A DNA stretch of 64,000 nucleotides from Pseudofrankia saprophytica (GTDB lineage Bacteria; Actinomycetota; Actinomycetes; Frankiales; Frankiaceae). Each line of letters opens with the position of its first letter. Position 1 is the stretch's first letter. The notes under the pieces were generated by a model. The model was not told the origin of the DNA. It saw only the letters and a list, made by a program, of their open reading frames with translations, and searched no databases. A program made the translations under genes and the position numbers. This document shows, piece after piece, positions 11,933 through 32,265 of this stretch. The DNA lies in the NCBI RefSeq assembly GCF_000235425.2, contig NZ_KI912266.1:7707130-7771129 (forward strand), given 5' to 3'.

Positions 11933-13123
11933 TCAGGCCGCCGAGAGGGCCAGGACCTCCAGCGCGTTGTCGTGGGAGATCTTCCGGACGTCGCCTGCGG
12001 GCAGGCTGGAGAGCGACTCGGTGACGAAGTCGACGGGCTCGGCGACGCCCTCCGCGTGCGGCCAGTCGGAACCGAGCAGCAGCCGGTCGACCCGCACGTC
12101 GGCGAGCAGGGCGTCGACCTGGTCCTCCCAGAACGGGGTGACCCAGACGTGCTCCCCGAACACGTCGCGGGGATGCTCCTTGAAGTAGCCGGGATTGCGG
12201 CCGGCCACGTCGTCGAGCCGGTGCAACAGGTCCGGGATCCAGCTCGCCCCGTTCTCGACACTCGCCATCCGCAGCCCGGGGAAACGCTCGAAGATCAGAT
12301 GGCAGAGCGCGGCGCCGTAGAAGTCGCCGACCGCGCGGCCCTTCGTCAGCACCCCGCGCAGCGGCGAGCGCAGGACCGACTGCTCCTCCCGGCCCGGCTC
12401 CCACATCTGCACCAGCGCGTCGTAGCCGTCGACACCGGCATGGGTCGCGACCACCACACCCGCCTCCGCGGCGAGCCCCCAGAACCCGTCGTACACCGGG
12501 TCGAACGGCGACCGGAAACCACCCGGCACCGGCACCGGCGCGTTGCGGACGTTCACCGCCACCGCCCCGGCGTCCAGCACCGCGCGCAGCTCCGTCACAG
12601 CGCCCACCGGATCCAGCAACGGCACGTACGGAACCGCGTACAGCCGGTCCTGATACCGGAAGCCCCAGTCCTCCGCCAGCCACCGGTTGAAACCGTGAAA
12701 GACCTTCGCCGCCGCGTCCGGGTCGTCCTTGAGGGCCTCCTCCAGGCCGACCCCGAGCGTCGGGAACAGCAGGCTGCCCGTGACGCGCTGCCTGTCCAGG
12801 GCCCGGACCCGGGCGTCCCGGTCCCGGTACTCCGCCCGGATCGGCTCCAGCGCCCCGAACGCCTCCCGAATGCTCTTACGCTCGGGGTTCCCGCGGTACC
12901 ACGAGTACAGCGCCCCAGGCCGGGCCACCGGATCGAACGTGGGATTCGCGATGTAGTTGTTGACCCTGCCCCCGACGATCAGCCGGGTACGCCCGTCGAT
13001 CTCCGCCCACCGCACCCCACGACTGCCCAGCGAGCGGTCCTGGTGCCGGGTGAACGCATCCCGCGCCTCGTAGTAGTGACTGTCGAAGTCGAAGATCCAC
13101 GCGTCCTGTCCCACGCCTGCCAT
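11933..13123 (-). CDS. Amidohydrolase-family metal-dependent hydrolase
   Basis: TIM-barrel hydrolase of the amidohydrolase-2 group, 396 residues. Visible hallmarks are FDFDSHYYE near the N-terminus (position of the family metal-binding D/H-x-H), THAG in mid-barrel and the late GSDWPHAEG with the catalytic Asp. This group includes ring-cleaving hydrolases and non-oxidative decarboxylases of aromatic acids (o-pyrocatechuate/resorcylate types), so a role in hydrolysis or decarboxylation is likely. It is divergent from a second, distantly similar amidohydrolase at 13321, with promoter elements between. Confidence 0.85.
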   Translation of the reverse strand: MAGVGQDAWIFDFDSHYYEARDAFTRHQDRSLGSRGVRWAEIDGRTRLIVGGRVNNYIANPTFDPVARPGALYSWYRGNPERKSIREAFGALEPIRAEYRDRDARVRALDRQRVTGSLLFPTLGVGLEEALKDDPDAAAKVFHGFNRWLAEDWGFRYQDRLYAVPYVPLLDPVGAVTELRAVLDAGAVAVNVRNAPVPVPGGFRSPFDPVYDGFWGLAAEAGVVVATHAGVDGYDALVQMWEPGREEQSVLRSPLRGVLTKGRAVGDFYGAALCHLIFERFPGLRMASVENGASWIPDLLHRLDDVAGRNPGYFKEHPRDVFGEHVWVTPFWEDQVDALLADVRVDRLLLGSDWPHAEGVAEPVDFVTESLSSLPAGDVRKISHDNALEVLALSAA

Positions 13124-13148
13124 GAGACCGCCCCGTTGGTCGATTTGT

Positions 13149-13188
13149 CAATATCGATGTCGACATTACTGATGATCATGGCTATGGT
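13149..13188. promoter_or_regulatory. CAATRTCGA element copy 2 with a predicted promoter
   Basis: CAATATCGA lies at 13149-13157 and forms an imperfect palindrome with TCGACATTA (13160-13168) across two bases. On the plus strand TCGACA (13160-13165) is a -35-like hexamer, 17 bases from the -10-like TATGGT (13183-13188). That would start transcription ~125 bases before the gene at 13321. On the minus strand GATATT overlaps the element and faces the gene at 13123. Confidence 0.55.
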
Positions 13189-13320
13189 CGTAGCCGTCCA
13201 CCGGCGACGGCCGCCGGGCGCTCCCAGGCGCGGCGACGTCCGGCCGGCGCCGGCTCCCGGCCCAGGGCGGCCGTCCTGGCCGCGCCCGTCCCGACAGCAG
13301 CTGTCACGAAAGGTGCCGAG

Positions 13321-14244
13321 GTGGCCCCAACCCTCCCGTCGGACCCGTCCGCCGCGCGGCCCCGGCCGTTCGACGTCGCGGTGATCGACACGATGGTCGG
13401 GTTCCCGCAGGATCCCGCCGCGCTCTACCAGCAGATCCGCGCGGTGCTGCGCGACCGGCAGTCACGCGAGGAGTTCGCGATGCCGGCGCAGTACATGTTC
13501 CACGACATCCCCGCCAGCCACGTCCCCGACGACGTCGACCCGGTCGACCTCGTGCTCGGTGAGATGGACCGGCACGGCATCGAGATCGCGCTGGTAAGCG
13601 TGAGCGCGAACGAACAGGTCGCCGGCCGGGCGCTGACCGACCATCCCGGCCGCTTCACCGGATCGTGGACCTGCGACCCGAACAAGGGGATGGCCGGCAT
13701 CCGCGAGCTCGTCCGCGCGCACGAGACATGGGGCGTCCGGGCGGCGGCCGTCTTCCCGCACGGCGGCCAGCCCCAGGTCCCCATCGACGCGCCCCAGATG
13801 TACCCGATCTACGCCAAGTGCGTCGAGCTCGGCATCCCCATCTTCGTCACCGTCGGCATCGCCGGGCCCCGCGTGCCGTCCATGGCGCAGCGCGTCGAGC
13901 TCATCGACCAGGTCATGTACGACTTCCCCGACCTCGTCTTCGTGATGCGCCACGGCGCCGAGCCGTGGACCGATCTCGCCGTGAAGCTCATGCTCAAATG
14001 GCCGAACCTGTACTACTCCACGAGTGCGTTCGCCCCGCGCTACTACCCGGCGAACATCATCGACTACGCCAACACCCGCGGCGCCGACAAGATCCTCTAC
14101 GGCGGCTACTTCCCGATGGGCCTCACCCTCGACCGCATCATGGCCGAGCTGCCCCACGTCGGCTTCAAGGACGACGTCTGGCCCAAATTCCTGCGCCACA
14201 ACGCCGCCCGCGTCCTCGGTCTGACCACCGGGCAGGAGCGGTGA
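13321..14244 (+). CDS. Amidohydrolase-family protein
   Basis: Second amidohydrolase-2-type TIM barrel, 307 residues, from GTG 13321 (GAAAGG 8 bases upstream). Family-like positions are visible: VIDTMVGFP at the start, VFPHGG, FVMRHGAEPW and YGGYFPMG at the end, where relatives have GSDxP. The canonical metal-binding His-x-His at the N-terminus and the final Asp are not evident, so it may bind metal differently or have lost catalysis. Head-to-head arrangement with the gene at 13123 suggests a shared regulator and perhaps a joint function. The 280 bases after it, up to 14524, hold no gene I can support. Confidence 0.75.
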   Translation: MAPTLPSDPSAARPRPFDVAVIDTMVGFPQDPAALYQQIRAVLRDRQSREEFAMPAQYMFHDIPASHVPDDVDPVDLVLGEMDRHGIEIALVSVSANEQVAGRALTDHPGRFTGSWTCDPNKGMAGIRELVRAHETWGVRAAAVFPHGGQPQVPIDAPQMYPIYAKCVELGIPIFVTVGIAGPRVPSMAQRVELIDQVMYDFPDLVFVMRHGAEPWTDLAVKLMLKWPNLYYSTSAFAPRYYPANIIDYANTRGADKILYGGYFPMGLTLDRIMAELPHVGFKDDVWPKFLRHNAARVLGLTTGQER

Positions 14245-16124: not shown

Positions 16125-16772
16125 TCAGGCCGGGCCGACGAGTGCGCGCACGACGTATCTGTCGACGAACTCCCGTTTCCGTGCCGGCGACCAGCCGGAC
16201 CACGGTGGGCTCATGATGATGACGCCCGCGGCCATCATCCACCGGACGGTCTCCCTGAGGTCCAGGTCGGTGGCAAGTTGCCGACCGTCCTGCCACTGTC
16301 GGAGTAGCGGCCGGAGGTGGCGATACACGGCGTCCACTATGGGTTCCGCGGTCAGTTCCAACGACTCCGGCAGCGATCGGCTTCCCGTGGCGAAGAGCGC
16401 CTCGTTGATGGCGTCTCCGTTGATCAGGTCCGTGCACTTCAGGAACACGTCACAGATCGAGCTCGACGCGTCTTCTGGCCGCGAAAGTGAACTGAGAACG
16501 CCCTGCATGGCGACGTCCACTCTGCTCAGCAGGACGGCGAGGATCAGTTCGTTGCGGCCTTTGAAGTATCGGTAGACCGTGGAGCGGGAGACGCCCGCCT
16601 CGACGGCCACCTCCTCGACGCGGATCCGGCTGGTGCCCCGCCGGGCGAGGCAGCGACCCGTGGCCGCGACCAGGCGCCGGCGGGCCTCCTCGTCGTCGAG
16701 CAGCGCGCTGTCGCTCCCCCACCACCCCGGGGTGCGCTGGCCCGCGCCGTCCTCCTCGGCGACCGCTGTCAT
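16125..16772 (-). CDS. TetR-family transcriptional regulator, last gene of the P450 operon
   Basis: Regulator of ~215 residues from ATG 16772; ATG 16799 is an alternative and neither has a strong ribosome site. The helix-turn-helix is clear: VEEVAVEAGVSRSTVYRYF, followed by KGRNELILAVLL. The C-terminal part is a typical variable ligand domain. It sits 43 bases after the SDR at 16816 in the same direction. It therefore appears to end a five-gene run (AttH-like, P450, kinase, SDR, TetR) and may autoregulate it. The TGAGACA element at the head of that run is a candidate operator. Confidence 0.85.
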   Translation of the reverse strand: MTAVAEEDGAGQRTPGWWGSDSALLDDEEARRRLVAATGRCLARRGTSRIRVEEVAVEAGVSRSTVYRYFKGRNELILAVLLSRVDVAMQGVLSSLSRPEDASSSICDVFLKCTDLINGDAINEALFATGSRSLPESLELTAEPIVDAVYRHLRPLLRQWQDGRQLATDLDLRETVRWMMAAGVIIMSPPWSGWSPARKREFVDRYVVRALVGPA

Positions 16773-16815
16773 GGAGCCATGGTAGGGGCGGCGCGGCATC
16801 CGTCCGTGGCTCGTC

Positions 16816-17676
16816 TCATGGGCCGGTACGGGCCGGCTCGGCCCTCCCCAGCAGGGCGTCCTTACCCCCGAACCGGGGCGCGACCAGGGTCGAGTAGTCC
16901 GGGCCCCGGCGCAGGGAGAGGCCGCCGTCGACGTTGACGATCTGCCCGGTGACCCTGGCGGCGCGGGACGACAGCAGGAAGCTGACCAGCTGCGCGACGT
17001 CGTCGACATCGGAGGCGCCCCCGAGCGGCGTGTTCTCGTCGTAGCTCTCGTAGACCGGCGTGCCCGGCTTCGCCCAGCTCATGATCTCCGTCGACGTCAG
17101 CCCCGGCCGGACGGCGTTGAACCGGATGCCCGCCGCCCCGTACTCGTCGGCGGCGTTGCGGATCAGTTCCTCCACGGCCGCCTTCGCCACCGGATAGGCA
17201 CCGAAGTATGGGTGCGTCACGTGTCCGGCGATCGACGAGATGGCGACGAACGAACCGGCGCCGGCGCCGGCGAACAGCGGAACCGAATGCTTGACCAACA
17301 GCAGCGTGCCGATGACGTTCAGCGTGAGGACACGGTTGAACTCGTCGACCTTCTGGGCGTGCAGCGGGGCCAGGGCACCACCACCGCCCGCGTTCGCGAC
17401 CACGCCGTCGAGCCGGTCGCGCCAACCGGCCGCGAGCTCGACGAGCTGCCGCACGTCCGGCTCGCTGGTGACGTCCGCGACGTGGAACTGGACCGCCTCG
17501 CGGCCGGCGTCGGCGTTGATCGAGTCCGCCGTCGCCCGCAGGGTGTCCGCGGTGCGGCCGCAGATCGTGACCCAGGCGCCCTCGGCCACCAGCCGCCGCG
17601 CGATACCCGCGCCGATGCCGGTACCGCCGCCCGAGACCAGCACCGACAGTCCGTCGGCCTCGTTCGTCATGTCCAT
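16816..17676 (-). CDS. SDR-family oxidoreductase
   Basis: SDR of 286 residues from ATG 17676 with AGGAAG eight bases upstream. The nucleotide motif is SGGGTGIGAG, the second strand motif VANAGGGG, and Ser and Tyr/Lys lie in AISSIAGH and YPVAKAA. RPGLTSTEI and QIVNVDGGLSL follow. It lies 65 bases downstream of the kinase gene and 43 upstream of the TetR gene on the same strand. Oxidation of an alcohol made by the nearby P450 is a reasonable guess, not shown. Confidence 0.9.
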   Translation of the reverse strand: MDMTNEADGLSVLVSGGGTGIGAGIARRLVAEGAWVTICGRTADTLRATADSINADAGREAVQFHVADVTSEPDVRQLVELAAGWRDRLDGVVANAGGGGALAPLHAQKVDEFNRVLTLNVIGTLLLVKHSVPLFAGAGAGSFVAISSIAGHVTHPYFGAYPVAKAAVEELIRNAADEYGAAGIRFNAVRPGLTSTEIMSWAKPGTPVYESYDENTPLGGASDVDDVAQLVSFLLSSRAARVTGQIVNVDGGLSLRRGPDYSTLVAPRFGGKDALLGRAEPARTGP

Positions 17677-17741
17677 GTGTCCGTCTTCCTGTGATCACGA
17701 CTCGTCTGATCGCCGGCACGCCGGCGCATGTCCGAGGGCTG

Positions 17742-18842
17742 TCAGCGGGCCGGGCCCGCGGACCTCTCGCGGGCTTCCTGAACACGCTCGGGCCGGGGCT
17801 CGACGGGTCCGGAGGGCAGTCGCTCGTCGATGCCGAGGTCGCGCAGGGCCCGCCGGACGTAGGGCGCGATGCCCAGCCCCATGAGGCTGAACCTCGGGTC
17901 GTCCGAGTGGCCGGCGTCGAACAGCATGGCGCCGACGAGGAGGATCACGCAGGTCTTGAACGACTGGAACGCCCGGTACCACTCCCGGTGCCGGACCGGT
18001 ATGCCGGTGAGCTCCTCGTAGTACGCGACCGCCTCGTCGGAGGTGAGGGCCGACGGCCGGCTCGTGAAGAAGCCAGGCGTCTTCCAGAGAAGGTCGAGGT
18101 ACCCGACGTCGGCGAGTGGGTCACCGACCCCGGCCATCTCCCAGTCGAAGACGCCGGTGACCTCGCCGTCCACGAACGCGAAGTTCCCGGGTTTCGGGTC
18201 GCCGTGGACCAGGGTGGCCCGCTCGGACGCCGCGGGCTTCCGGTCCCGCAGCTCGGTGAGCAGCCGCTCCAGCGCCGGGAGCTCGTCGCGCTGGACCCGG
18301 CGCATCTCGGCCGTCCAGTGGTCGAGCTGGTCGTCGACATACGTCCGGCCGTCGCCCAGGGCGGCCAGGCCGCTGCCGGAGAGGTCCACCGAGTGGATCG
18401 CGGCGAGCTGTTCGACGAGTGCCAGCGTCATGCGTCGAATCGTCGCGGGCCGCGCGTCGAGCCACTCGGGTATCTCCTGCTCGTAGACATCCCCGACCAC
18501 TCGCTCCATCACGTAGAACGGCCGCCGCAGCACCTCGCCGGACTCGTCGAGCCACAGGACCGCCGGGCTCTGCACGTCGGTCTTCTCGAGCGCTCGCAGG
18601 ATGGTGAACTGCCGGGTCATGTCATACGGCTCCAGCAGGCCCGGAAACGGCGGGCGCAGGCGCAGGACGACATCCTGGCGACGCTGCTCGGTGCCGGCGC
18701 GCCAGGCCAGCGTCAGCGCGAGCATCTCGGCCGAGTGACCGAAGGTGACCCGGCTGGAGTTCTCGACGCGGACGTCGGTCGCGGGCGCGAGCCGGTCCCG
18801 GAACCATAAGGTGAGCAGCTCGAGAGCGTCCTCGGTTCGCAT
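17742..18842 (-). CDS. APH-fold phosphotransferase (ACAD10/11 kinase-domain-like)
   Basis: Protein of 366 residues with the aminoglycoside-phosphotransferase kinase fold. Brenner-type motifs are visible: LVHGDPKPGNF with the catalytic Asp (catalytic loop) and VTGVFDWEMAGVGDPLADVGY with the metal-binding Asp. The invariant Lys is not evident; VVLRLRP appears in the equivalent strand. Such proteins next to acyl-CoA genes resemble the kinase domain of eukaryotic ACAD10/11 and LvaA rather than antibiotic resistance enzymes. It is 26 bases downstream of the P450 and is one of three such kinases in the region. Phosphorylation of a hydroxyacyl substrate is inferred. Confidence 0.85.
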   Translation of the reverse strand: MRTEDALELLTLWFRDRLAPATDVRVENSSRVTFGHSAEMLALTLAWRAGTEQRRQDVVLRLRPPFPGLLEPYDMTRQFTILRALEKTDVQSPAVLWLDESGEVLRRPFYVMERVVGDVYEQEIPEWLDARPATIRRMTLALVEQLAAIHSVDLSGSGLAALGDGRTYVDDQLDHWTAEMRRVQRDELPALERLLTELRDRKPAASERATLVHGDPKPGNFAFVDGEVTGVFDWEMAGVGDPLADVGYLDLLWKTPGFFTSRPSALTSDEAVAYYEELTGIPVRHREWYRAFQSFKTCVILLVGAMLFDAGHSDDPRFSLMGLGIAPYVRRALRDLGIDERLPSGPVEPRPERVQEARERSAGPAR

Positions 18843-18868
18843 TGCTCGCCATGCTCCTTTCGCGCCGG

Positions 18869-20068
18869 TCAGCTCGGGGTGAAGCGGATGCGGATACGGT
18901 CGTAGGCCCTGGCGAAGGTGGCCGCCAGGATCTGGGGCTCGTCCGGGTCGACCAGCTCCCAGTCCGGCATCCTGCGCAGCAGCTCCTCGAACATCACGCG
19001 AATCTCGAGGCGGGCGAGGTGGGCGCCCAGGCACACATGGGTGCCGAAACCGAAGGCGACATGCCGCTCGGACGTTCTCGTCACGTCGAGGACGTCCGGG
19101 TCCGTGAAGGCCCGCGGGTCACGGTTGGCGGCCGAGTAGAGCAGCAGGATCTGGTCGCCCGAGCGGATGTGCTGCCCGTGCAGCTCGTGGTCCTCGGTGG
19201 CGGTGCGCCTCATGTTGAGGACGGGCGACACCCACCGGATGAACTCCTCGACCGCCGTGTGCGTGAGCAGCTCGGGCTGCTCGCGCAGCAGCCGCCGCTG
19301 CTCGGGGTGCAGCGCCAGGTCGCGGATCATCGTGCCGATCACGGTCCGGGTCGTCTCCGCCCCGCCGTCGAGCACGAGGATGGTCTCGTCGAGAACGCGT
19401 TTGGTGTCCCACCCCGGGGTCGTCACCCACAGCGAGATGAGGTCGTCGCGGGGCTCGGCCCGGCGGGCCTCGATGATCTGCACGGTGGTCGCGACGAAGT
19501 CCTTGATGACGGGGATGATCCCGGGGTGGGTGACGTGCGGCGGGCCGTCCGGTGACGTCTTGCCGGACAGCAGCATGATCTGCTCCGACCAGTACCGGAC
19601 CTTCTCCCACAGCTCGCGCGGGTATCCCAGCAGGTCGCCGATCACGATGGCCGGAAGCCGCGAGGCGATGGACTCGATCGCCTCGCACTCCCCGAGCGGC
19701 GTCACCGCGTCGAGGATCTCCGCGACGACGCCGCGAACGTGCTGTTCATGGCTACGCATGGCACGCGGGGTGAACCGCCGGGCCACCACGTTGCGCTGGT
19801 CCTGGTGGTCCGGATCGTCCATATTGATCATGGAACGGTCTTCGCGCAGGTCGATGTGCGGCCGGGAGCCGTAGAACGACGAGTACCGGGCGCCGTCCTT
19901 CTCGACCGCGAGGACGTCGGAGAAACGGGAGACGACCCACAGCTTCTGTACCGGGTCCCAGAAGACCGGAGCCTCGTCGCGCAGCCAGCGGTACGCCTCC
20001 CACGGGTCCACGTAGAACTCGGGGTCGAGAACGTTGATCCGCTCTTCGGCGGCGGTCCCGGTCGTCAT
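18869..20068 (-). CDS. Cytochrome P450
   Basis: Soluble bacterial P450 of 399 residues. The heme-ligand motif FGFGTHVCLGAHLARLE is near residue 345. The I-helix reads GGAETTRTVIG, with Glu-Thr-Thr where most have Asp/Glu-Thr-Thr. The K-helix Glu-x-x-Arg is in EEFIRWVSPV. It would hydroxylate a hydrophobic substrate with electrons from a ferredoxin system not encoded here. ATG 20068 overlaps the stop of the upstream AttH-like gene by four bases (ATGA). This tight coupling suggests that the two act together. Confidence 0.95.
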   Translation of the reverse strand: MTTGTAAEERINVLDPEFYVDPWEAYRWLRDEAPVFWDPVQKLWVVSRFSDVLAVEKDGARYSSFYGSRPHIDLREDRSMINMDDPDHQDQRNVVARRFTPRAMRSHEQHVRGVVAEILDAVTPLGECEAIESIASRLPAIVIGDLLGYPRELWEKVRYWSEQIMLLSGKTSPDGPPHVTHPGIIPVIKDFVATTVQIIEARRAEPRDDLISLWVTTPGWDTKRVLDETILVLDGGAETTRTVIGTMIRDLALHPEQRRLLREQPELLTHTAVEEFIRWVSPVLNMRRTATEDHELHGQHIRSGDQILLLYSAANRDPRAFTDPDVLDVTRTSERHVAFGFGTHVCLGAHLARLEIRVMFEELLRRMPDWELVDPDEPQILAATFARAYDRIRIRFTPS

Positions 20069-21231
20069 GCGAACGACACCTGGTGGTCGGAGGCAGCCGT
20101 CAGGCCGAGTTCGGGCCACTCGCCGTGGATGAGGCTCTCCAGGATGCCGTAGCCCACCGCGTCGCCTTCCCGGACCCGGACCGGCGTGTCGCGAAGCTGG
20201 CCGAGGACGCGCAGGTTCTCGTCGCTCCAGCAGTCCTCGAAGTACTCGCCGTCGAGGTGCAGCTTTCCCAGCCACGACCCGTGGATGTGCCCGCCCCAGG
20301 ATCCGTATCCCCCGGTCTTCAGGAAGAAGCCGGACTCGCCGAGGGCCTCGACCTCGATGACCCGCTTCTCACCGGAATCCATCGTGAGGTGCAGCTCCCC
20401 ACCCCTCACGAACCGCGTACGGCTGTCGTACTCGATGCGCGGCTCGGCCTCACGGATCTTCAGCTGGGTGCCGTCGGACTCGTTGAGATACGCGGAGGTG
20501 TATCCCCAGACGCCTTCGGCGATGAAGATGGCGGTCTCGTAGTACGAGCCGTCGGGGCGGCGCAGGAAGGCCGGCGCCCATTTCATCCCGCCCTTGACCT
20601 GTGTCTCCTGCCGCGGCGCCCGACTCCGGATCAGATCCGTCGGGGGCGCCCCGACGGCCTGCCGGACACCCCACGAGTGGTCCCGATAGCCGAACCACGC
20701 CTCTGGGCGGACCTCGTGGGTCTCGCCGTCGACCGTGACGGTGCCCGACACCCAGCCACCCTGGTGATAGCGGACGACGTTGACGTCCACCCGGCCGGTG
20801 CGGCGGTTGCGAACGAGGTTGCGGTCCTCGAAGAACGGTGGAGTCACGCCGGACAGGACGAGGTCGAAGGAGATGGGCTGGACATCGTTGGGCTCCAGCC
20901 GGAACCGCACCTGGTCCAACGACGCGACGATCTCGTAGTGGATCGGGCCGACCGCCGTCTCCTCCGGGTCGCTGCGCAGTTCCCGGCTACCTCGGACCGT
21001 CCACTGCGAACGGCCCCGGGAGACACCCGCGAAGCCGTCCATGATGCCCCGGTTGTGGTACTTCCCCAACCCGAAGCCGACCTGCAGCGAACCGTCGACG
21101 CTCGCCAGCGAGCCCCAGATCTTCTCCGTCCAGGCAAGATCGGACTCCGCCACGGTGGCGAACGTGTCCGCTAACTGATGGTTCAGGGTCTCGTCGGCGC
21201 CACGCAGCGCTCCGATGTCCTTAGGTGCCAT
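20065..21231 (-). CDS. AttH-like/DUF7064-type protein coupled to the P450
   Basis: Protein of 388 residues from ATG 21231, preceded by GAGGGGACAG. The sequence is beta-rich with many Trp/Gly and has no signal peptide. Segments such as EAWFGYRDHSWGVR and GGHIHGSWLGKLHLDGEY resemble the hydroxyneurosporene-synthase/AttH lipocalin-like superfamily (the DUF7064/7065 annotations used in actinobacteria), in which carotenoid hydratases are the best-known members. No catalytic residues can be assigned. It is the first gene of the P450 operon. It may bind, hydrate or present a hydrophobic substrate; function unknown. Confidence 0.75.
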   Translation of the reverse strand: MAPKDIGALRGADETLNHQLADTFATVAESDLAWTEKIWGSLASVDGSLQVGFGLGKYHNRGIMDGFAGVSRGRSQWTVRGSRELRSDPEETAVGPIHYEIVASLDQVRFRLEPNDVQPISFDLVLSGVTPPFFEDRNLVRNRRTGRVDVNVVRYHQGGWVSGTVTVDGETHEVRPEAWFGYRDHSWGVRQAVGAPPTDLIRSRAPRQETQVKGGMKWAPAFLRRPDGSYYETAIFIAEGVWGYTSAYLNESDGTQLKIREAEPRIEYDSRTRFVRGGELHLTMDSGEKRVIEVEALGESGFFLKTGGYGSWGGHIHGSWLGKLHLDGEYFEDCWSDENLRVLGQLRDTPVRVREGDAVGYGILESLIHGEWPELGLTAASDHQVSFA

Positions 21232-21283
21232 CTGTCCCGTCCCCTCACGACGCAGCACGACTGCGACTCACGACGGCAAGCAT

Positions 21284-21320
21284 GTCGCATGGCAACACAC
21301 TATTGCACTCATGTCTCATC
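21284..21320. promoter_or_regulatory. TGAGACA element upstream of the P450 operon
   Basis: Read on the minus strand, GATGAGACATGAGTGCAATA is followed by a TGTTGC stretch. The same order (GATGAGACA, CAATAG, TGTTGC) occurs at 22615-22640 near the next operon. It lies 53-89 bases upstream of ATG 21231, a normal place for a promoter and operator. Confidence 0.45.
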
Positions 21321-21409
21321 TTCTTCAAGAAGCGGGCGAGCACCGGCCAGCGGCCCCGGACGCCGCTGACCAGATCGAGGCCGACCGGATCGAGATCGTC
21401 GGCTGGCGC

Positions 21410-22525
21410 TCAGAAGACGATCGCCCCGCGGAGGATCTGACCGGCCTCCAGGTCTGCGTAGCCGTCGTTGACCTGGTCGAGCGTGTACGTCCTGGTGACG
21501 AGCTCGTCGATCTTCAGGATGCCCGCGCGGTACAGGTCGAGCAGGCGCGGGATCGCCACTCGTGGGCTCTGCGAGCCGTACAGGCAGCCGCGGATCTGCT
21601 TGTTCGTCATCGCGAACATGAACAGGTTGACGTCCGCCTGCGCCTGGCCCGCCGGCGCCACCGCGGTGATGACGCACGTGCCGTCCTTGCCGGTGAGGCC
21701 CAGTGCGGGCTCCAGCAGCTCGGAACGCATCACCGAGAACGCGCAGATGACCGCGTCGCACATCGCGCCCGCGGTCAGCCGCCTGATCTGGTCGGCTGCC
21801 TCGTCCAGGGACGCGAACGCGTGGGTGGCACCGAGGCGCAGCGCCTGGTCGCGCTTGAACTCCACCGGGTCGACGGCGAACACCCGGCGGGCCCCCGCGA
21901 TACGCGCGCCCTGCACCGCGCTGACGCCGATGCCGCCGACGCCCAGGACGGCGACGGTGTCGCCCGGCTTCACCTCGGCGCGGTTCACCGCGGAGCCGAA
22001 CCCCGTGGCGACACCGCAGGACACCAGTGCGGCCACCGTCCAGGGCACCTCGGGATCGATCTTGACGAGCGAGGTCTCGGCGACCAGCTGACGCTCGGAG
22101 AACGCGCCGAGCTGGGAGTAGCGAGCCACGGGCTCGCCGCCGACGCGGTGGGCGATCCGCCCGTCGGTCATCATGCCGAGGCTGAACAGCTTCGCGCCCT
22201 CGTCGCACAGGAAGGCCCGGCCCGTGCGGCACAGCCCGCAGACGCCGCAGGACGGCACGAACGACATCGCCACGTGGTCACCCGGCCGGACCGAGGTGAC
22301 CCCCGGACCAACCTCGGTCACCTCACCGGCGCCCTCGTGGCCGCAGATTATCGGGTAGTGCGACATCGGCATGTCGCCCGTGCGCGCGTGCTCGTCGGAG
22401 TGGCACAGGCCGCAGGCCCGCACCTCGATCAGGACCTCGCCGGCCCGGGGTCCGTCGATGTCGACCGTCTCGATCTTGAAGTCCCGACCTGGGCCGTGCA
22501 GCAGCGCCGCTCGTGAGCTGACCAT
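21410..22525 (-). CDS. Zinc-dependent alcohol dehydrogenase (NDMA-dependent type)
   Basis: Medium-chain dehydrogenase of 371 residues. Catalytic zinc ligands are Cys-His in RACGLCHSDEH, GHEGAG, and the later Cys in LVSCGVATGFG. The structural zinc has four Cys in CGVCGLCRTGRAFLC. The nucleotide motif is GVGGIG. Sequence style fits the actinobacterial NDMA-dependent group, whose tightly bound NAD needs an external redox partner. ATG 22525 has AAGGTGAG upstream and is preferred to GTG 22537. It is divergent from the 22697 gene across a 171-base control region. It probably oxidises a pathway alcohol. Confidence 0.92.
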   Translation of the reverse strand: MVSSRAALLHGPGRDFKIETVDIDGPRAGEVLIEVRACGLCHSDEHARTGDMPMSHYPIICGHEGAGEVTEVGPGVTSVRPGDHVAMSFVPSCGVCGLCRTGRAFLCDEGAKLFSLGMMTDGRIAHRVGGEPVARYSQLGAFSERQLVAETSLVKIDPEVPWTVAALVSCGVATGFGSAVNRAEVKPGDTVAVLGVGGIGVSAVQGARIAGARRVFAVDPVEFKRDQALRLGATHAFASLDEAADQIRRLTAGAMCDAVICAFSVMRSELLEPALGLTGKDGTCVITAVAPAGQAQADVNLFMFAMTNKQIRGCLYGSQSPRVAIPRLLDLYRAGILKIDELVTRTYTLDQVNDGYADLEAGQILRGAIVF

Positions 22526-22587
22526 CTCGTGACTCACCTTTCGTGAACCCGCGGTGGTGCGACCTCGGGCGAAGCCTGGCCGCAGGG

Positions 22588-22634
22588 TGAGACAGCATCA
22601 ATCAATCGACTCAGGATGAGACAGTCAATAGATT
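22588..22634. promoter_or_regulatory. Divergent promoter with repeated TGAGACA elements
   Basis: TGAGACAG occurs at 22588-22595 and 22617-22624, 29 bases apart in the same orientation. On the plus strand TCGACT (22606-22611) and TAGATT (22629-22634) are separated by 17 bases. On the minus strand TTGACT (22628-22623) and TTGATT (22605-22600) are also 17 apart. The two predicted promoters overlap each other and the repeats, so one regulator could control both operons. Confidence 0.5.
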
Positions 22635-22696
22635 CTGTTGCGACCCGGCGCCCCGCCGCGGGCCTGACGTCGCACCGGAGCAGGTGGAGACCACGC

Positions 22697-23302
22697 ATGA
22701 CGACCGACACGGGACCGGACGAGGACGACGTCCTGCAGGCGTTCCGCCTCATCGACCAACGACTCGTCGACACACCAGGGCATCGCGGCCTTCGACTGCT
22801 CCGGGAGCGCCTCGCCGGCGAGCTGATCGGTGACTCCGAGCGCGTGGGGGCGACGCTGGATCCGGCGTTCGCCCTCGTGACGCACGCGGGCGGAAGCGCC
22901 ACGAGGACCGACCGGGCGGCCCTCGTGGAGACGGTCCACCGCCAGGGCCGCGCGAAGGGCGCGGCGATGACCTGGCTGCGCCTCGACGACCTGGTCGTCG
23001 AGGGCGACGCCATCGCGGGCCAGGGCGTGCTGCGCACGCTGCTGACCGCCCCGCTGGCCCAGCGGCAGGGCTGGCAGGGCCTCGGCCCGGCCGACCTGTG
23101 CCTCACGACGATCCCACTCGCGTTCTTCATTCGTCTCGTGGGCGACCTCATGACGTCCGAGGTCCTGTACCTGGCCGCCGACGCGAGCGAGCGGACGGTC
23201 CTGACGAACGGCTCGCGGCCAGACCCGGATCACTGCCTCAGGCTCATCGACGGCGGGGGCGCCGGCCTGACGGCGGGCCTCACCACGGAAGGCGGCTCAT
23301 GA
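22697..23302 (+). CDS. Hypothetical protein, possibly NTF2-like
   Basis: Unrecognised protein of 201 residues from ATG 22697 (AGGTGGAGA upstream). It is mixed alpha/beta with no signal peptide, membrane segment or Cys-rich motif. The central FALVTHAGGSATRTDRAALV followed by a long strand (MTWLRLDDLVVEGDAIAGQG) is reminiscent of SnoaL/NTF2-like proteins, but that is a weak impression. Its stop overlaps the next SDR start (ATGA), so it is coupled to an SDR and then an acyl-CoA synthetase. A small pathway enzyme, such as an isomerase or dehydratase, is the best guess. Confidence 0.65.
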   Translation: MTTDTGPDEDDVLQAFRLIDQRLVDTPGHRGLRLLRERLAGELIGDSERVGATLDPAFALVTHAGGSATRTDRAALVETVHRQGRAKGAAMTWLRLDDLVVEGDAIAGQGVLRTLLTAPLAQRQGWQGLGPADLCLTTIPLAFFIRLVGDLMTSEVLYLAADASERTVLTNGSRPDPDHCLRLIDGGGAGLTAGLTTEGGS

Positions 23303-24069: not shown

Positions 24070-24166
24070 CCACGCGAGACGCCGAGAGCCAAAGGGTGTG
24101 CAAAATGATCTTCTTGTGCGCGCCCGGCGGCCGTCCCCAGGATCAGCAGCAGCAGGAGGCATCCCC

Positions 24167-25777
24167 ATGAGCGGCGCATCGCCGGACGAGGCGGCGGACC
24201 TGTACCAGGACCTGTACCGCGGCGCGTTCCTTCCCGACCTGCTGATCGCCGCGCTGCGCCGCCATCCCGACCGGCCCGCGATCCATCTCGGGGAAAGCGT
24301 CCTGACCGGCGCCCAGCTCAGCGCGCGGATCAGCCAGTACGCGCAGGTCTACGTGGCGAAGGGGGTGCGGCCCGGCAGCGGCGTCGCCATGCTCTCCACG
24401 AACCGCCCCGAGGTGCTGTACGCGATGGGCGCCTACATGGTCGCGGGCGCCCGCAACACCTCGCTGCACCCGTTGGGCTCGCTCGACGACCACGCGTACG
24501 TCCTCGAGGACGCCCAGATCGAGACGCTGGTGTTCGACCCAGCCTTCGCCGAGCGGGCCGCCCGGCTCCAGGAGCGGGTGCCAGCCCTGAAGCGGCTGCT
24601 GTCGTTCGGGCCGTGCGACGTCGGCGAGGACCTGAACGCGCTCGCGGAAGGCCACGACCCGCTGCCGCTGGTCGCGCCCCGCCTCGACGCCGAGGGGATC
24701 TCCGCGGTGGCCTACACCGGCGGGACGACCGGGCAGCCCAAGGGCGTGATGGCCACCTACCGCGGCAGCGCCGCGATGACCCAGATCCTGCTCACCGAAT
24801 GGCAGTGGCCGACCGATCTGCGCCACCTGGTCTGCACACCGCTGAGCCACGCGGGCGCGCCCTTCATCGTCCCGGTCCTGCTCCAGGGCGGTTCGGTGGT
24901 CGTGCTTCCCAGGTTCGACGCCGGCGCGGTCCTCGACGCCATCGAACGCCACCGCATCACGTCGGTCTTCCTCGTCCCGGCGATGATCTACGCGATCCTC
25001 GACCATCCACGGCTCGACCAGACCGACCTCTCCAGCCTCCAGACGGTCTTCTACGGGGCCTCGGCGATGTCGCCCACCCGGCTGAGAGAGGCGATCACGC
25101 GGATCGGGCCGGTCTTCTTCCAGTTCTACGGGCAGACGGAGGCACCCCAGACGGTGTTCGTGCTGCGCAAGGAGGAACACGACCCGGACGACCTGTCCCG
25201 GCTGGCCTCCTGCGGCCGGCCGGTGCCGTGGCTGAAGGTCGCGCTGCTCGACGACCAGGGGCACGAGGTGCCGCGCGGCGAGCCCGGGGAGATCTGCGTA
25301 CGCGGGCCGCTGGTCATGAAGGGCTACTGGAACAAGCCGGAGCAGACCGCCGAGGCCCTCGCCGGCGGCTGGCTGCACACCGGCGACATCGCCCGCGAGG
25401 ACGAGCGCGGCTTCCACACGATCGTGGACCGCAAGAAGGACATGATCGTCAGTGGCGGCTTCAACGTCTTCCCCCGCGAGATCGAGGACGTGCTCTCGAC
25501 GCACCCCGCGGTGGCCGCGGCCGCCGTCATCGGCGTGCCCGACGAGAAATGGGGCGAGGCCGTCAAGGCCGTCGTGGTGCTCCGCGCCGGCACGGCGGTG
25601 TCGGCCGACGAGCTGGCGGCGGAGCTAGCCGCGCTGGTCAAGGAGCGCAAGGGCTCCCACTACGCCCCCAAGAGCGTCGAGTTCGCCGACACCCTCCCGC
25701 TCACCGCCGTCGGCAAGCCGGACAAGTTGACCCTGCGCCAGCGCTACTGGTCGGGCGCGGCCCGCCGGGTCGGCTGA
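24167..25777 (+). CDS. AMP-dependent acyl-CoA synthetase
   Basis: Adenylate-forming ligase of 536 residues; ATG 24167 follows AGGAGG. The P-loop-like AMP motif is AYTGGTTGQPKGVM (~185-198). YGQTEAPQ, GWLHTGDIAREDERGF and the hinge DRKKDMIVSGGFNVFP follow. The catalytic Lys is in TAVGKPDKL near the C-terminus. All core motifs are intact, so it should activate a carboxylic acid to its CoA thioester with ATP. It is the third gene of an operon with the hypothetical protein and an SDR. The FadD3/FadD17-type style fits alicyclic or side-chain acids, but the substrate is unproven. Confidence 0.92.
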   Translation: MSGASPDEAADLYQDLYRGAFLPDLLIAALRRHPDRPAIHLGESVLTGAQLSARISQYAQVYVAKGVRPGSGVAMLSTNRPEVLYAMGAYMVAGARNTSLHPLGSLDDHAYVLEDAQIETLVFDPAFAERAARLQERVPALKRLLSFGPCDVGEDLNALAEGHDPLPLVAPRLDAEGISAVAYTGGTTGQPKGVMATYRGSAAMTQILLTEWQWPTDLRHLVCTPLSHAGAPFIVPVLLQGGSVVVLPRFDAGAVLDAIERHRITSVFLVPAMIYAILDHPRLDQTDLSSLQTVFYGASAMSPTRLREAITRIGPVFFQFYGQTEAPQTVFVLRKEEHDPDDLSRLASCGRPVPWLKVALLDDQGHEVPRGEPGEICVRGPLVMKGYWNKPEQTAEALAGGWLHTGDIAREDERGFHTIVDRKKDMIVSGGFNVFPREIEDVLSTHPAVAAAAVIGVPDEKWGEAVKAVVVLRAGTAVSADELAAELAALVKERKGSHYAPKSVEFADTLPLTAVGKPDKLTLRQRYWSGAARRVG

Positions 25778-29890: not shown

Positions 29891-29926
29891 GTTGTCTCCC
29901 GAATATCAACCCGACGACGGGGAGTG

Positions 29927-30931
29927 ATGACGATAGAAATCGACCTGGGCACGCTCGAGTCGCGGCTCGCGGTCATCGGACTCACCGGCCTGCGTCGCCT
30001 GTCCGGCGGCGCGTCCAGCCTGTCGTACGTCGGAACGGCCACCGTCGACGGCATTTCTCGTCCCGTCGTCGTAAAAGCAGCGCCACCGGGCCTGGAACCG
30101 GTGCGCAACCGTGATGTGCTGCGCCAGGCGTCGATGCTGCGCCGGCTGGCGGCGACCGAGGTGCCGGTGCCCACGGTCCTGTGGGAGGACCCCGGCGACC
30201 CGCCCGAGGTGCCGCCGGTCTTCGTGATGTCGTTCGTGCCGGGCGCCTCCTTCGAGCCGCTGTTCGACCGCGACGGCGACGGCGGCGGCGACCCCGACGA
30301 CGGCGGCGACCCGGCCGTCGTCGCCGACCGGATGCTCGATGCCGCTCGTACCCTCGCCGCGCTGCACCGGCTGAGCCCCGCCGCGCTGGGGCTGGCCGAC
30401 GAGCCCCAGGTCGGCCTCGCGGACGAGGTGCGTCGCTGGACACGCGCACTGGGAACCGTCGACCCGACACTCGTGCCCGGCTGGGAGCGGGTCGCGGAGG
30501 CGCTGCTCGCCACCGAGCCGGCCGCGATCGCGCCGGCCGTCGTCCACGGCGACTTCCGCCTCGGCAACCTGCTGGCCTCGGGCCCCACCGTCACCGCCGT
30601 CATCGACTGGGAGATCTGGTCGGTCGGCGACCCCCGGGTGGACCTCGGGTGGTTCCTCATCAACGCCGACCCGGCCACCTACGGCCGGCGGACCCGCTAC
30701 GCCGAAGCGCTCCCCGCGCCGGCCGACCTCGCGGCGACCTACGCCGAGCGCCTGGGCCGCGACGTCCCGGCGCTGGACTGGTTCCAGGCGTTCGCCTGCT
30801 TCAAGTCGGCCGCCACCTGGTCGCTGATCGTGAAGCACTCCCGGCGCCGGCCGGCGCCGGACCCGATGGCCGAGGAGCTGGCCGGCGCGCTGCCCGGGCT
30901 GCTCACGCGGGCCGCCGATCTGCTGGGCTGA
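29927..30931 (+). CDS. APH-fold phosphotransferase (ACAD10/11 kinase-like)
   Basis: Kinase-fold protein of about 334 residues. It starts at LGTLESRLAVIGLTG with a Gly-rich loop RLSGGASSLSYVG and a Lys strand RPVVVKAAPPG. The catalytic loop is VVHGDFRLGNL, the metal-binding Asp is in AVIDWEIWSVGDPRVDLGW, and FKSAATWSLI follows. All core kinase residues are present. A DGDGGGDPDDGGD acidic insert is unusual. ATG 29927 with GGGGAG very close upstream; GTG 29924 is possible. It converges on the acyl-CoA dehydrogenase at 30970 across 38 bases. ACAD10/11 and LvaA/LvaC pair exactly these two folds. Confidence 0.88.
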   Translation: MTIEIDLGTLESRLAVIGLTGLRRLSGGASSLSYVGTATVDGISRPVVVKAAPPGLEPVRNRDVLRQASMLRRLAATEVPVPTVLWEDPGDPPEVPPVFVMSFVPGASFEPLFDRDGDGGGDPDDGGDPAVVADRMLDAARTLAALHRLSPAALGLADEPQVGLADEVRRWTRALGTVDPTLVPGWERVAEALLATEPAAIAPAVVHGDFRLGNLLASGPTVTAVIDWEIWSVGDPRVDLGWFLINADPATYGRRTRYAEALPAPADLAATYAERLGRDVPALDWFQAFACFKSAATWSLIVKHSRRRPAPDPMAEELAGALPGLLTRAADLLG

Positions 30932-30969
30932 CGGTCGTAACCGGGGCCTGTCCCGGGCACGGGCGCGCA

Positions 30970-32265
30970 TCAGGTCCGTGGGATTCCGGCGAGGCGGTCG
31001 GCGAACTTCGCCTCGGCCTCGGCGCGCAGGCGCACCAGGTGGCCCGACGGGAACAGGCCCTCCGCGGGCGAGTACCCCTTCAGCAGCTCGCGGGCGAGGG
31101 TGACCTTGTGGACCTCGGTCGGCCCGTCGGCGAGCCCGAGCACGAACGACTCGACGAGGTAGTGCACGAAGGGCATCTCGTGGGTCGTGCCGAGCGAGCC
31201 GTGCAGCTGCAGCGCCCGCGAGCTGACGTCGTGCAGCACCTTCTGCATCATCGCCTTGACCGCGGAGATGTCCGCGCGGACGGCCTTGTAGTCCTGGAAC
31301 TTGTCGATCTTCCACGCGGTCTGCAGGGTCAGCAGGCGGAACGCCTCGATCTCCATCCACGAGTCGGCGACCATCTGCCGCACGAGCTGCTTGTCTCCCA
31401 GCACCTCGCCCTGGGTGAAGCGGGAGACCGCCCGCTCGCAGATCATGTCGAAGATCCGCCGGACCAGCCCGACCGTGCGCATCGCGTGGTGGATGCGGCC
31501 GCCGCCGAGCCGGGTCTGGGCGACCATGAACGCACCGCCGCGCGGGCCGAGCATGTGGTCGGCCGGGACGCGGACGTTCTCGTACCGGACGTAGCCCTCG
31601 CTGCCCTGGCCGACCGGCTCGTAGCCCATCCCCACGTTGCGCAGGATGTTCACGCCGGGTGTCCCGGCCGGGACGACGAACATCGACTGCCGCTGGTACG
31701 GCGGCGCGTCCGGGTCGGTCACCGTCATCACGATCAGGAACGACGCGAGGGCGGCGAACGAGGTGAACCACTTCTCGCCGTTGATGACCCACTCGTCGCC
31801 GTCGAGCGTCGCGGTGGTCGTGAAGATCTTCGGGTCGGCGCCGCCCTGCGGCTCGGTCATCGAGAACGACGACACGATGCGGTTGTCGAGCAACGGCTCG
31901 AGGTAGCGCTTCTTGAGCTCCGGCGTGCCGAAGCGGGCGAGGATCTCGCTGTTACCGGAGTCGGGGGCCTGCGAGCCGAAGACGATCGGCGCGCAGACCG
32001 ACCGGCCGAGGATCTCGTTGAGCAGGGCGAGCTTCACCTGCCCGAAGCCCGGCCCGCCGAGCTCGGCGCCGAGATGGGTCGCCCATAACCCCTTCTCCTT
32101 GACGATCGCCTGCAGCGGCGGAATGAGCGCCTGCCGGACCGGGTCATGGAGGTCATGTGACTCCCGGACCACCAGGTCCAGCGGCTCGCACTCCTCGCGC
32201 ACGAACGCGTCGGCCCAGGTCAGAAGCTCGGCGTAGTCCGGATCGGTCGCGAAGTCCCATGCCAC
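30970..32265 (-). CDS. Acyl-CoA dehydrogenase (ACAD10/11-like)
   Basis: FAD-dependent acyl-CoA dehydrogenase of 431 residues. The N-terminal helical domain is followed by the substrate/FAD signature FSMTEPQGGADP and a beta domain (WVINGEKWFTSFA). The C-terminal domain carries GGGRIHHAMRTVG and ends with VLGLADGPTEVHK. The RIHHxMR and ADGPxEVH motifs are shared with the ACAD10/11 branch rather than with short- and medium-chain enzymes. The GTG at 32265 is used. It is divergent from the SDR/thiolase operon across a 56-base region containing element copy 4. Confidence 0.92.
   Translation of the reverse strand: MAWDFATDPDYAELLTWADAFVREECEPLDLVVRESHDLHDPVRQALIPPLQAIVKEKGLWATHLGAELGGPGFGQVKLALLNEILGRSVCAPIVFGSQAPDSGNSEILARFGTPELKKRYLEPLLDNRIVSSFSMTEPQGGADPKIFTTTATLDGDEWVINGEKWFTSFAALASFLIVMTVTDPDAPPYQRQSMFVVPAGTPGVNILRNVGMGYEPVGQGSEGYVRYENVRVPADHMLGPRGGAFMVAQTRLGGGRIHHAMRTVGLVRRIFDMICERAVSRFTQGEVLGDKQLVRQMVADSWMEIEAFRLLTLQTAWKIDKFQDYKAVRADISAVKAMMQKVLHDVSSRALQLHGSLGTTHEMPFVHYLVESFVLGLADGPTEVHKVTLARELLKGYSPAEGLFPSGHLVRLRAEAEAKFADRLAGIPRT

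What the first reader, a model, noticed from the sequence alone, without database searches (positions are those of the whole stretch)
16125..22640. P450 translationally coupled to an AttH-like protein, in a kinase/SDR/TetR operon
The AttH/DUF7064-like gene (20065-21231) and the P450 share an ATGA joint. The kinase, SDR and TetR genes follow at 26, 65 and 43 bases. The AttH-like superfamily includes carotenoid hydratases, so the pair could hydrate or deliver and hydroxylate an isoprenoid or steroid-like molecule. The order AttH-like, P450, kinase, SDR, regulator is not one I recognise.
Basis: partly seen in the sequence, partly recalled or inferred. Interest (0 to 1): 0.65.

Follow-up and report, generated by a model that had tools for sequence, protein, structure and literature searches.

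The report
P450 operon with alcohol-dehydrating kinase–lyase pair
A bacterium of the Frankia group carries an operon in which an oxygen-using P450 sits between relatives of two enzymes that together strip water from stubborn alcohols at the cost of ATP, a chemistry described for anaerobic sterol breakdown; what this operon acts on is not yet known.

Summary
The operon is real, with the coordinates, ATGA joint and gaps as stated. The interpretation needs changing. The AttH-like protein belongs to NCBIfam's Rv3169 family (361.6 bits, cut-off 150). Its closest solved relative, by sequence (E 2.8e-29) and predicted fold (Z 37.9, 328 residues, 2.5 Å), is 25-phosphosteroid lyase (25-PSL). The kinase model best matches 25-hydroxysteroid kinase (25-HSK, Z 31.2) and Rv3168 (30.6). 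Those two steroid enzymes act consecutively: ATP phosphorylates a tertiary alcohol, then phosphate is eliminated to an alkene.

In 129 distinct loci the enriched neighbour is the kinase (within 2.5 kb in 71 of 129); the P450 is not enriched overall. It marks one clade (16 of 129), where CoA ligase and SDR genes often recur too. In a separate phylum-wide sample a kinase adjoins in 16 of 36 loci (three weak), a P450 in none.

Best reading: a catabolic operon pairing ATP-dependent alcohol dehydration with P450 oxidation, probably of a steroid- or terpenoid-like substrate. Activity, substrate and step order are inferred, not shown. The mycobacterial Rv3168–Rv3169 type locus looks like a related pair.

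The parts
20065..21231 (-). AttH-fold protein of the Rv3169 family; predicted phosphate-eliminating C-O lyase, homologue of 25-phosphosteroid lyase
   Evidence: NF053593 361.6 bits; phmmer to 25-PSL 2.8e-29; AlphaFold model pLDDT 87.1, best PDB match 25-PSL Z 37.9, 328 aligned, 2.5 A
18869..20068 (-). Cytochrome P450, about 40% identical to a CYP125 protein deposited as CYP125MRCA and 38% to CYP142A3; heme-Cys, ExxR and I-helix motifs seen by eye (motifs recalled)
   Evidence: Pfam 4.9e-23; PDB hits; identities counted; ATGA overlap with the AttH-like gene
17742..18842 (-). APH-fold kinase with HGDxxxxN and DWE motifs; predicted alcohol kinase, homologue of 25-hydroxysteroid kinase and Rv3168
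   Evidence: Pfam APH 1.1e-35; invariant G214, D215, N220, D233 in the 36 aligned kinases; model pLDDT 94.6, 25-HSK Z 31.2, Rv3168 Z 30.6
16816..17676 (-). Short-chain dehydrogenase/reductase, nearest NCBIfam PRK05875 (277.7 bits, below cut-off 334)
   Evidence: orthologue in 12 of the 16 P450-type loci, window included
16125..16772 (-). TetR-family regulator, last gene of the operon
   Evidence: TetR_N 1.8e-11; orthologue at 250 bits or more in 4 of the 16 P450-type loci as fetched, window included
21410..22537 (-). NDMA-dependent alcohol dehydrogenase, 178 bases upstream, same strand; found only in the window among the 16 P450-type loci
   Evidence: TIGR03989 494.6 bits, cut-off 440; mycofactocin maturase TIGR03962 in the genome, 600.6 bits
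23299..24069 (+). SDR (SDR3), divergent
   Evidence: orthologue in 10 of the 16 P450-type loci
24098..25777 (+). FadD8-like acyl-CoA ligase; in L114 the orthologue follows lyase, P450 and kinase on the same strand
   Evidence: PRK06188 721 bits, below cut-off 875; orthologue at 700 bits or more in 9 of the 16 P450-type loci
21297..21319 (-). Candidate promoter/operator box ATGAGACA-N4-TGCAATAGTGT upstream of the lyase gene; TGAGACA also at 22588 and 22617 (+) in the ADH promoter region
   Evidence: similar box upstream of the lyase gene in L049/L096, L059/L094, L060/L108, L069/L099; chosen after seeing the sequences, whole-window counts not significant

Best explanation
The operon encodes a catabolic module built around an ATP-dependent alcohol dehydration. 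The kinase phosphorylates an unactivated, probably tertiary, hydroxyl of a hydrophobic substrate; the AttH-fold protein then eliminates phosphate to leave an alkene; the P450 oxidises the same molecule; the dehydrogenases oxidise the resulting alcohol; the divergent FadD8-like ligase makes a CoA ester for further breakdown; TetR controls the set. By analogy with Sterolibacterium (25-HSK, 25-PSL, then allylic C26 hydroxylation) I slightly favour the order kinase, lyase, P450, with the P450 doing with O2 what the molybdenum enzyme S26DH1 does with water; the order P450 first, then kinase and lyase (net desaturation), is the main alternative. Shown: gene content, homology, predicted fold, kinase motifs, linkage and co-variation of kinase and lyase. 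Inferred: all catalysis, the substrate class, the order of steps, regulation by TetR.
For: Lyase: phmmer to 25-PSL 2.8e-29; fold match to 25-PSL Z 37.9 over 328 residues, above AttH 2ich (24.0), kievitone hydratase (22.0) and pericyclases (19.6); 25-PSL entries are solved with phosphate and the alkene desmost-1,4-diene-3-one. Kinase: 25-HSK with ADP and 25-phosphosteroid Z 31.2, Rv3168 30.6, then 3dxp 29.6, homoserine kinase 22.9. The pair is linked: kinase within 2.5 kb in 71 of 129 distinct loci, adjacent in 16 of 36 in a separate sample, and 14 of 15 close relatives of the window kinase in 58 genomes, the window's own included, lie beside the lyase gene. Kinase and lyase tree distances correlate (Mantel r 0.66, 0 of 2000 permutations, 71 pairs), and three pairs of one genome (L039, L059, L078) each group with the matching pair of other genomes in both trees. 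P450: 11 of 13 close relatives in 58 genomes, own included, lie beside the lyase gene; 16 of 129 loci have the window-type P450, all on the lyase strand within 1 kb, 14 of 16 with a kinase in the fetched locus; CoA ligase in 9, SDR3 in 10, SDR in 12 of the 16. A second pair of the family in the same genus is much closer to the characterised enzymes (L037: lyase 314 bits to 25-PSL, kinase best hit 25-HSK, 153 bits); the own genome has its counterpart, L042. Chemistry known from PMC8449060 and PMC11061730 (passages and one section).
Against: No activity is shown. The window lyase is only 25-27% identical to 25-PSL in the fold alignments, and the sequence match is strong only over residues 13-194. 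By sequence the window kinase's best PDB hit is 9o56 (111 bits), with 3dxp (90), Rv3168 (87), 25-HSK (85) and ACAD11 (82) close together, so it is not specifically a 25-HSK; 3dxp is within 2 Z units in fold. 58 of 129 loci have no kinase hit within 2.5 kb, some of them cut by contig ends. Three of the 16 adjacent kinase hits in the phylum sample are weak (45-53 bits). The Mantel test does not remove shared ancestry, and some kinases group with another lyase's partner (L113 and L114 with L149 and L150; L126). The APH model used for the density count was trained on lyase-linked kinases, which favours near hits. The TetR and ADH genes are not constant parts (4 and 1 of 16).
Confidence: 0.68

Rival explanations
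1. P450 first: the P450 installs a hydroxyl on an unactivated carbon, the kinase phosphorylates it and the lyase eliminates it, so the three enzymes together act as an O2- and ATP-dependent desaturase.
For: Lyase-P450 stop/start overlap in 14 of 14 loci with that order; kinase next in most of them; nearest solved P450s are CYP125/CYP142, of the kind that hydroxylates unactivated side-chain carbon (PMC8449060 passage).
Against: The P450 reaction described there makes a primary C26 alcohol that is oxidised to the acid, not dehydrated; in the characterised pathway the dehydration precedes the C26 hydroxylation. 59 of the 71 kinase-linked loci lack the window-type P450.
Confidence: 0.3
2. One reading: the AttH-like protein is a hydratase (like carotenoid or kievitone hydratases) or a carrier working with the P450.
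For: Same superfamily fold: kievitone hydratase Z 22.0. 58 of 129 loci show no kinase within 2.5 kb.
Against: 25-PSL fits far better (Z 37.9 vs 22.0); the kinase, not the P450, is the recurrent partner.
Confidence: 0.12
3. The kinase acts on 4-hydroxyacyl-CoA-like substrates as LvaA and the kinase domain of ACAD10/11 do, and the AttH-fold protein replaces the acyl-CoA dehydrogenase as the phosphate-eliminating partner.
For: By sequence the window kinase is nearly as close to ACAD11 (82 bits) as to 25-HSK (85 bits); a CoA ligase orthologue is in 9 of 16 P450-type loci; kinase plus phosphate elimination on acyl-CoAs is established (PMC11342911, passages).
Against: The fold ranking puts 25-HSK and Rv3168 on top; 25-PSL is solved with a free sterol product (titles).
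Confidence: 0.2
4. The kinase is a drug-modifying or self-resistance enzyme and its place in the operon is incidental.
For: Pfam calls it APH; weak NCBIfam similarity to APH(3') (34.2 bits, cut-off 205).
Against: Below the cut-offs of all 12 NCBIfam families listed for it; aminoglycoside kinases are at Z about 21, 25-HSK at 31; linkage and co-variation with the lyase.
Confidence: 0.03

Closest known systems
25-HSK / 25-PSL, ATP-dependent dehydration of 25-hydroxysteroids, described for Sterolibacterium denitrificans
   Same: Homologous kinase and homologous lyase; both models match these PDB entries best
   Different: The 2021 paper saw no lyase candidate near the 25-HSK gene, and that pathway is anaerobic and uses molybdenum hydroxylases; here lyase, P450 and kinase are one operon and the lyase is only 25-27% identical. 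That paper already noted phosphotransferases up to 46% identical to 25-HSK in Actinobacteria. The tools did not show the source organism of the PDB entries
Rv3167c / Rv3168-Rv3169 of Mycobacterium tuberculosis
   Different: In the passages read the operon is Rv3168-Rv3169 alone, without P450, SDR or CoA ligase; the window lyase is of a separate subfamily (26% identity to the L034 lyase in A1)
LvaA/LvaC and ACAD10/ACAD11
   Same: Same logic: a kinase phosphorylates a hydroxyl, a partner eliminates phosphate (PMC11342911, passages)
   Different: Partner is an acyl-CoA dehydrogenase, substrate a 4-hydroxyacyl-CoA
CYP125 / CYP142 sterol C26 monooxygenases
   Same: Nearest solved P450s
   Different: Only about 40% and 38% identity; substrate unknown
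AttH / kievitone hydratase / decalin pericyclase fold (Pfam DUF7064/DUF7065 neighbours)
   Same: Same overall fold
   Different: Much more distant than 25-PSL; below Pfam cut-offs for DUF7064/7065

Membership tests
NCBIfam NF053593 Rv3169 family | Score over curated cut-off 150 bits | tested here: met
   361.6 bits over residues 10-368
Pfam DUF7064 / DUF7065 | Score over gathering cut-offs 24.7 / 27 | tested here: not met
   15.7 and 19.7 bits
25-phosphosteroid lyase | Sequence homology | tested here: met
   phmmer 2.8e-29, residues 13-194
25-phosphosteroid lyase | Fold | tested here: met
   Z 37.9, 328 aligned, 2.5 A
25-phosphosteroid lyase | Phosphate- and steroid-binding residues | tested here: inconclusive
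   HQ, VRxSR, RxxQ and RDxSWGxR stretches are shared with 25-PSL, but which residues bind phosphate could not be read from coordinates
25-phosphosteroid lyase | Elimination of phosphate from a 25-phosphosteroid | not testable with these tools
   needs enzyme assay
25-hydroxysteroid kinase | Fold and catalytic kinase motifs | tested here: met
   Z 31.2; G214, D215, N220, D233 invariant in 36 sequences
25-hydroxysteroid kinase | Closest relative among solved APH kinases | tested here: inconclusive
   best by fold (tied with Rv3168), fourth by sequence
25-hydroxysteroid kinase | ATP-dependent phosphorylation of a tertiary alcohol | not testable with these tools
   needs enzyme assay
CYP125/CYP142 families | At least about 40% identity (nomenclature rule, recalled) | tested here: inconclusive
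   40.4% to CYP125MRCA, 38.3% to CYP142A3, counted on local alignments
NDMA-dependent alcohol dehydrogenase TIGR03989 (the upstream ADH) | Score over cut-off 440 | tested here: met
   494.6 bits
Aminoglycoside-resistance APH | Score over NCBIfam cut-offs | tested here: not met
   best 34.2 bits vs 205

The most novel reading that the evidence does not exclude
The P450, kinase and lyase work as one three-enzyme desaturase: O2 places a hydroxyl on an unactivated carbon, ATP turns it into a leaving group, and the AttH-fold lyase eliminates it, giving a site-specific alkene without a membrane desaturase. More widely, the Rv3169 family would be a large, mostly unrecognised family of phosphate-eliminating lyases with dedicated kinases, mycobacteria included.
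Probability: 0.25. Interest if true: 0.82.

Novelty: new variant of a known kind. Interest (0 to 1): 0.62.

Why it matters
ATP-dependent dehydration of a free tertiary alcohol by a separate kinase and C-O lyase is described, in the papers read, for the anaerobic sterol degrader Sterolibacterium. These data suggest that such pairs occur in many actinobacteria and proteobacteria, that one clade has joined the pair with a P450 in one operon, and that the Rv3168-Rv3169 type locus of mycobacteria is the same kind of pair. That turns several 'aminoglycoside phosphotransferase' and 'AttH/DUF' annotations into a testable reaction and points to a possible route from tertiary alcohols to alkenes for biocatalysis.

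Tried and rejected
DUF7064/DUF7065 as the family: rejected, below cut-offs; a search of the own genome with PF23212 listed three other places and not the window gene. A kinase-lyase fusion in the own genome (L042, one 855-aa frame): not claimed, because the frame crosses a run of N. P450 as a general partner of the family: rejected by the density count and the phylum sample. Steroid catabolism as proof of substrate: KshA_C gives two strong hits elsewhere in the genome and two near the cut-off, but the best KstR-like hit is far below its cut-off (154.8 vs 280), so the substrate stays open. Operator box: TGAGACA occurs 3 times in the window, all in the two promoter regions, but it was chosen after seeing the sequences and the whole-window counts are not significant (2 matches; 17 and 16 of 100 shuffles reach 2). 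Literature: five searches looked for a link between the Rv3169 family and phosphosteroid chemistry and two more looked wider (one search listed 10 of 487, 20 of 27). In one search no paper held both Rv3169 and either enzyme name. I opened passages of PMC8449060, PMC11061730, PMC5340868 and PMC11342911 only (plus one section of the first); the other papers that mention Rv3169 were seen as listings. Only open-licence PubMed Central papers are held and the 25-PSL structures were released in January 2026, so a paper may exist. The first neighbourhood drawing missed kinases hidden by over-long frames; HMM-envelope versions replaced it.

Rows dropped: of the rows above about 187 bits, the window's own gene, G008:C58, G007:C617 and G032:C14 were not fetched; 11 of 140 loci were dropped as duplicates; of 42 rows, five belonged to G000/G037 and were not fetched again, and two pieces of one gene were merged, leaving 36. 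A2 uses the window and 41 of 79 named loci; A3 uses the window and 35 of the 51 kinases listed. One search counts hits of 100 bits or more, one search hits of 40 bits or more.
Full report
What is there. The window lies in a 9.98-Mb, two-contig genome. The most similar named loci are from Pseudofrankia and Frankia, so the organism is most likely a Pseudofrankia (inference). The five genes and all stated gaps are confirmed, as is the ATGA joint. An NDMA-dependent alcohol dehydrogenase lies upstream on the same strand, and an unassigned gene (22685-23302), an SDR and a FadD8-like CoA ligase lie divergently beyond it.

What the AttH-like protein is. Pfam sees it only weakly. NCBIfam places it in the Rv3169 family with 361.6 bits. 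By sequence its only PDB relatives at E up to 1 are 25-phosphosteroid lyase entries (E 2.8e-29). A model built from 42 sequences (pLDDT 87.1) matches 25-PSL at Z 37.9 over 328 residues. The next folds are AttH 2ich at 24.0, kievitone hydratase at 22.0 and pericyclases at 19.6. The solved 25-PSL complexes hold phosphate and desmost-1,4-diene-3-one, the alkene product (product as described).

What the kinase is. It is an APH-fold enzyme with conserved catalytic motifs. Its model (pLDDT 94.6) ranks 25-HSK first (Z 31.2), then Rv3168 (30.6) and 3dxp (29.6); a homoserine kinase follows at 22.9. By sequence it is about equally far from several members of this branch, ACAD11 included, so I do not call it a 25-HSK.

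The known chemistry. In Sterolibacterium denitrificans 25-HSK phosphorylates a tertiary C25 alcohol, and phosphate elimination gives a Δ24 alkene, which is then hydroxylated at C26 (PMC8449060 and PMC11061730, passages and one section). The 2021 paper reported no lyase candidate near the 25-HSK gene and noted related phosphotransferases in Actinobacteria. Kinase plus phosphate elimination is also known for LvaA/LvaC and ACAD10/11 (PMC11342911, passages).

Neighbourhoods. I compared the window, 60 regions from relatives and 79 named loci, 129 distinct after removing 11 duplicates. A kinase hit of 100 bits or more lies within 2.5 kb in 71 of 129 and within 300 bases on the same strand in 50 of 129. 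Kinase density falls from 0.113 per kb within 2.5 kb to 0.010 at 2.5-5 kb and 0.0013 at 5-9 kb. P450 density does not fall in this way (0.046, 0.029, 0.036 per kb). In a separate phylum-wide draw 27 of 198 genomes, the window's own included, have the family at E 1e-40. Of 36 further loci 16 have an adjacent same-strand kinase hit, 13 of them at 100 bits or more, and none has a P450 within 2.5 kb. So the kinase is the general partner, though far from universal.

The P450 clade. Window-type P450s (HMM score 560 bits or more) occur in 16 of the 129 loci, always on the lyase strand within 1 kb; 14 of 16 also have a kinase in the fetched locus. Orthologues of the CoA ligase are in 9, of SDR3 in 10, of the operon's SDR in 12, of its TetR in 4 and of its ADH in 1 of the 16, the window counted each time and the count limited by the flanks fetched. 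The loci come from Pseudofrankia, Frankia and Parafrankia and from Acidimicrobiales or unclassified actinomycete MAGs (titles), besides unnamed relatives. Orders differ: lyase-P450-kinase-SDR-TetR in L094-L096; P450-kinase-lyase in L113; lyase-P450-kinase-CoA ligase-SDR-SDR in L114; L115 similar with the kinase 6 kb away. Where the P450 directly follows the lyase gene the stop and start codons overlap in 14 of 14 loci, by four bases in most and by one in L101/L048 and L051. In the mycobacterial loci L102-L107 the kinase directly follows with a one-base overlap, behind a divergent TetR gene. In the reciprocal test 11 of 13 close P450 relatives and 14 of 15 close kinase relatives in 58 genomes lie beside the lyase gene, own copies included. 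One P450 exception (L220) lies in a locus with a kinase, a weak AttH-like stretch and the same CoA ligase; the other (L221) and the lone kinase (L222) are on short contigs, and L222 also holds the CoA ligase.

Co-variation. Distances between 71 lyases and their kinases correlate (r 0.66, 0 of 2000 permutations). In one genome with three pairs (L039, L059, L078) each pair groups with the matching pair of other genomes in both trees. This suggests that kinase and lyase travel as units. The permutation test does not correct for common descent, and there are exceptions: the kinases of L113 and L114 are nearest to those of L149 and L150, whose lyases are elsewhere in the lyase tree, and L126 also differs.

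Link to mycobacteria. In M. tuberculosis the TetR protein Rv3167c represses the Rv3168-Rv3169 operon (PMC5340868, passages). The searches made for it listed no paper that joins this operon to phosphosteroid chemistry.

Reading. The best explanation is a catabolic operon that removes an unactivated hydroxyl by phosphorylation and elimination and couples this to P450 oxidation, oxidation of alcohols and CoA activation. The order of steps and the substrate are open. The nearest P450s are sterol C26 hydroxylases at about 38-40% identity, which with the sterol-acting kinase and lyase relatives suggests a steroid- or terpenoid-like compound. Against a firm sterol claim: the window lyase and kinase are distant from the sterol enzymes, while a second pair of the same family in the genus is much closer.

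Changes made on checking: the overlap count was extended from 12 to 14 loci and the make-up of the 16 P450-type loci was counted; weak kinase hits and the exceptions were added.

Noticed in passing
29924-32265: A second APH kinase (29924-30931, +) lies tail to tail with an acyl-CoA dehydrogenase (30970-32265, -) whose second-best PDB relative is ACAD11 (224 bits): possibly an LvaA/LvaC-like kinase and phosphate-eliminating pair, about 8 kb from the operon.
   Followed up: partly
L042 (own genome, C1:4518385-4535437): A second kinase plus Rv3169-family pair, of the type closest to 25-HSK/25-PSL, in the window's own genome; kinase and lyase read as one 855-aa frame, but across a run of N, so no fusion is claimed.
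   Followed up: partly
22685-23302: Gene of 205 aa beside the ADH with no Pfam match at E 1e-4 and no NCBIfam match at 1e-30; function unknown.
   Followed up: no
21318, 22588, 22617: TGAGACA occurs three times in the window, all in the promoter regions of the lyase and ADH genes: a possible shared operator.
   Followed up: partly
11933-14244: Two Amidohydro_2 (PF04909) proteins on opposite strands, also near the operon in L094 and L096; perhaps part of the same catabolic region.
   Followed up: no
L135, L137-L144, L147, L148, L151-L153: Amycolatopsis, Pseudonocardia, Rhodococcus and related loci with an Rv3169-family gene, no kinase hit in the fetched locus and an AMP-ligase-like gene about 3-5 kb downstream: a different context of the family.
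   Followed up: no
L220 (70000-84000 of G003:C191): Kinase, weak AttH-like stretch, a P450 of about the window type and the FadD8-like ligase in one locus: perhaps a diverged version of the cluster.
   Followed up: no
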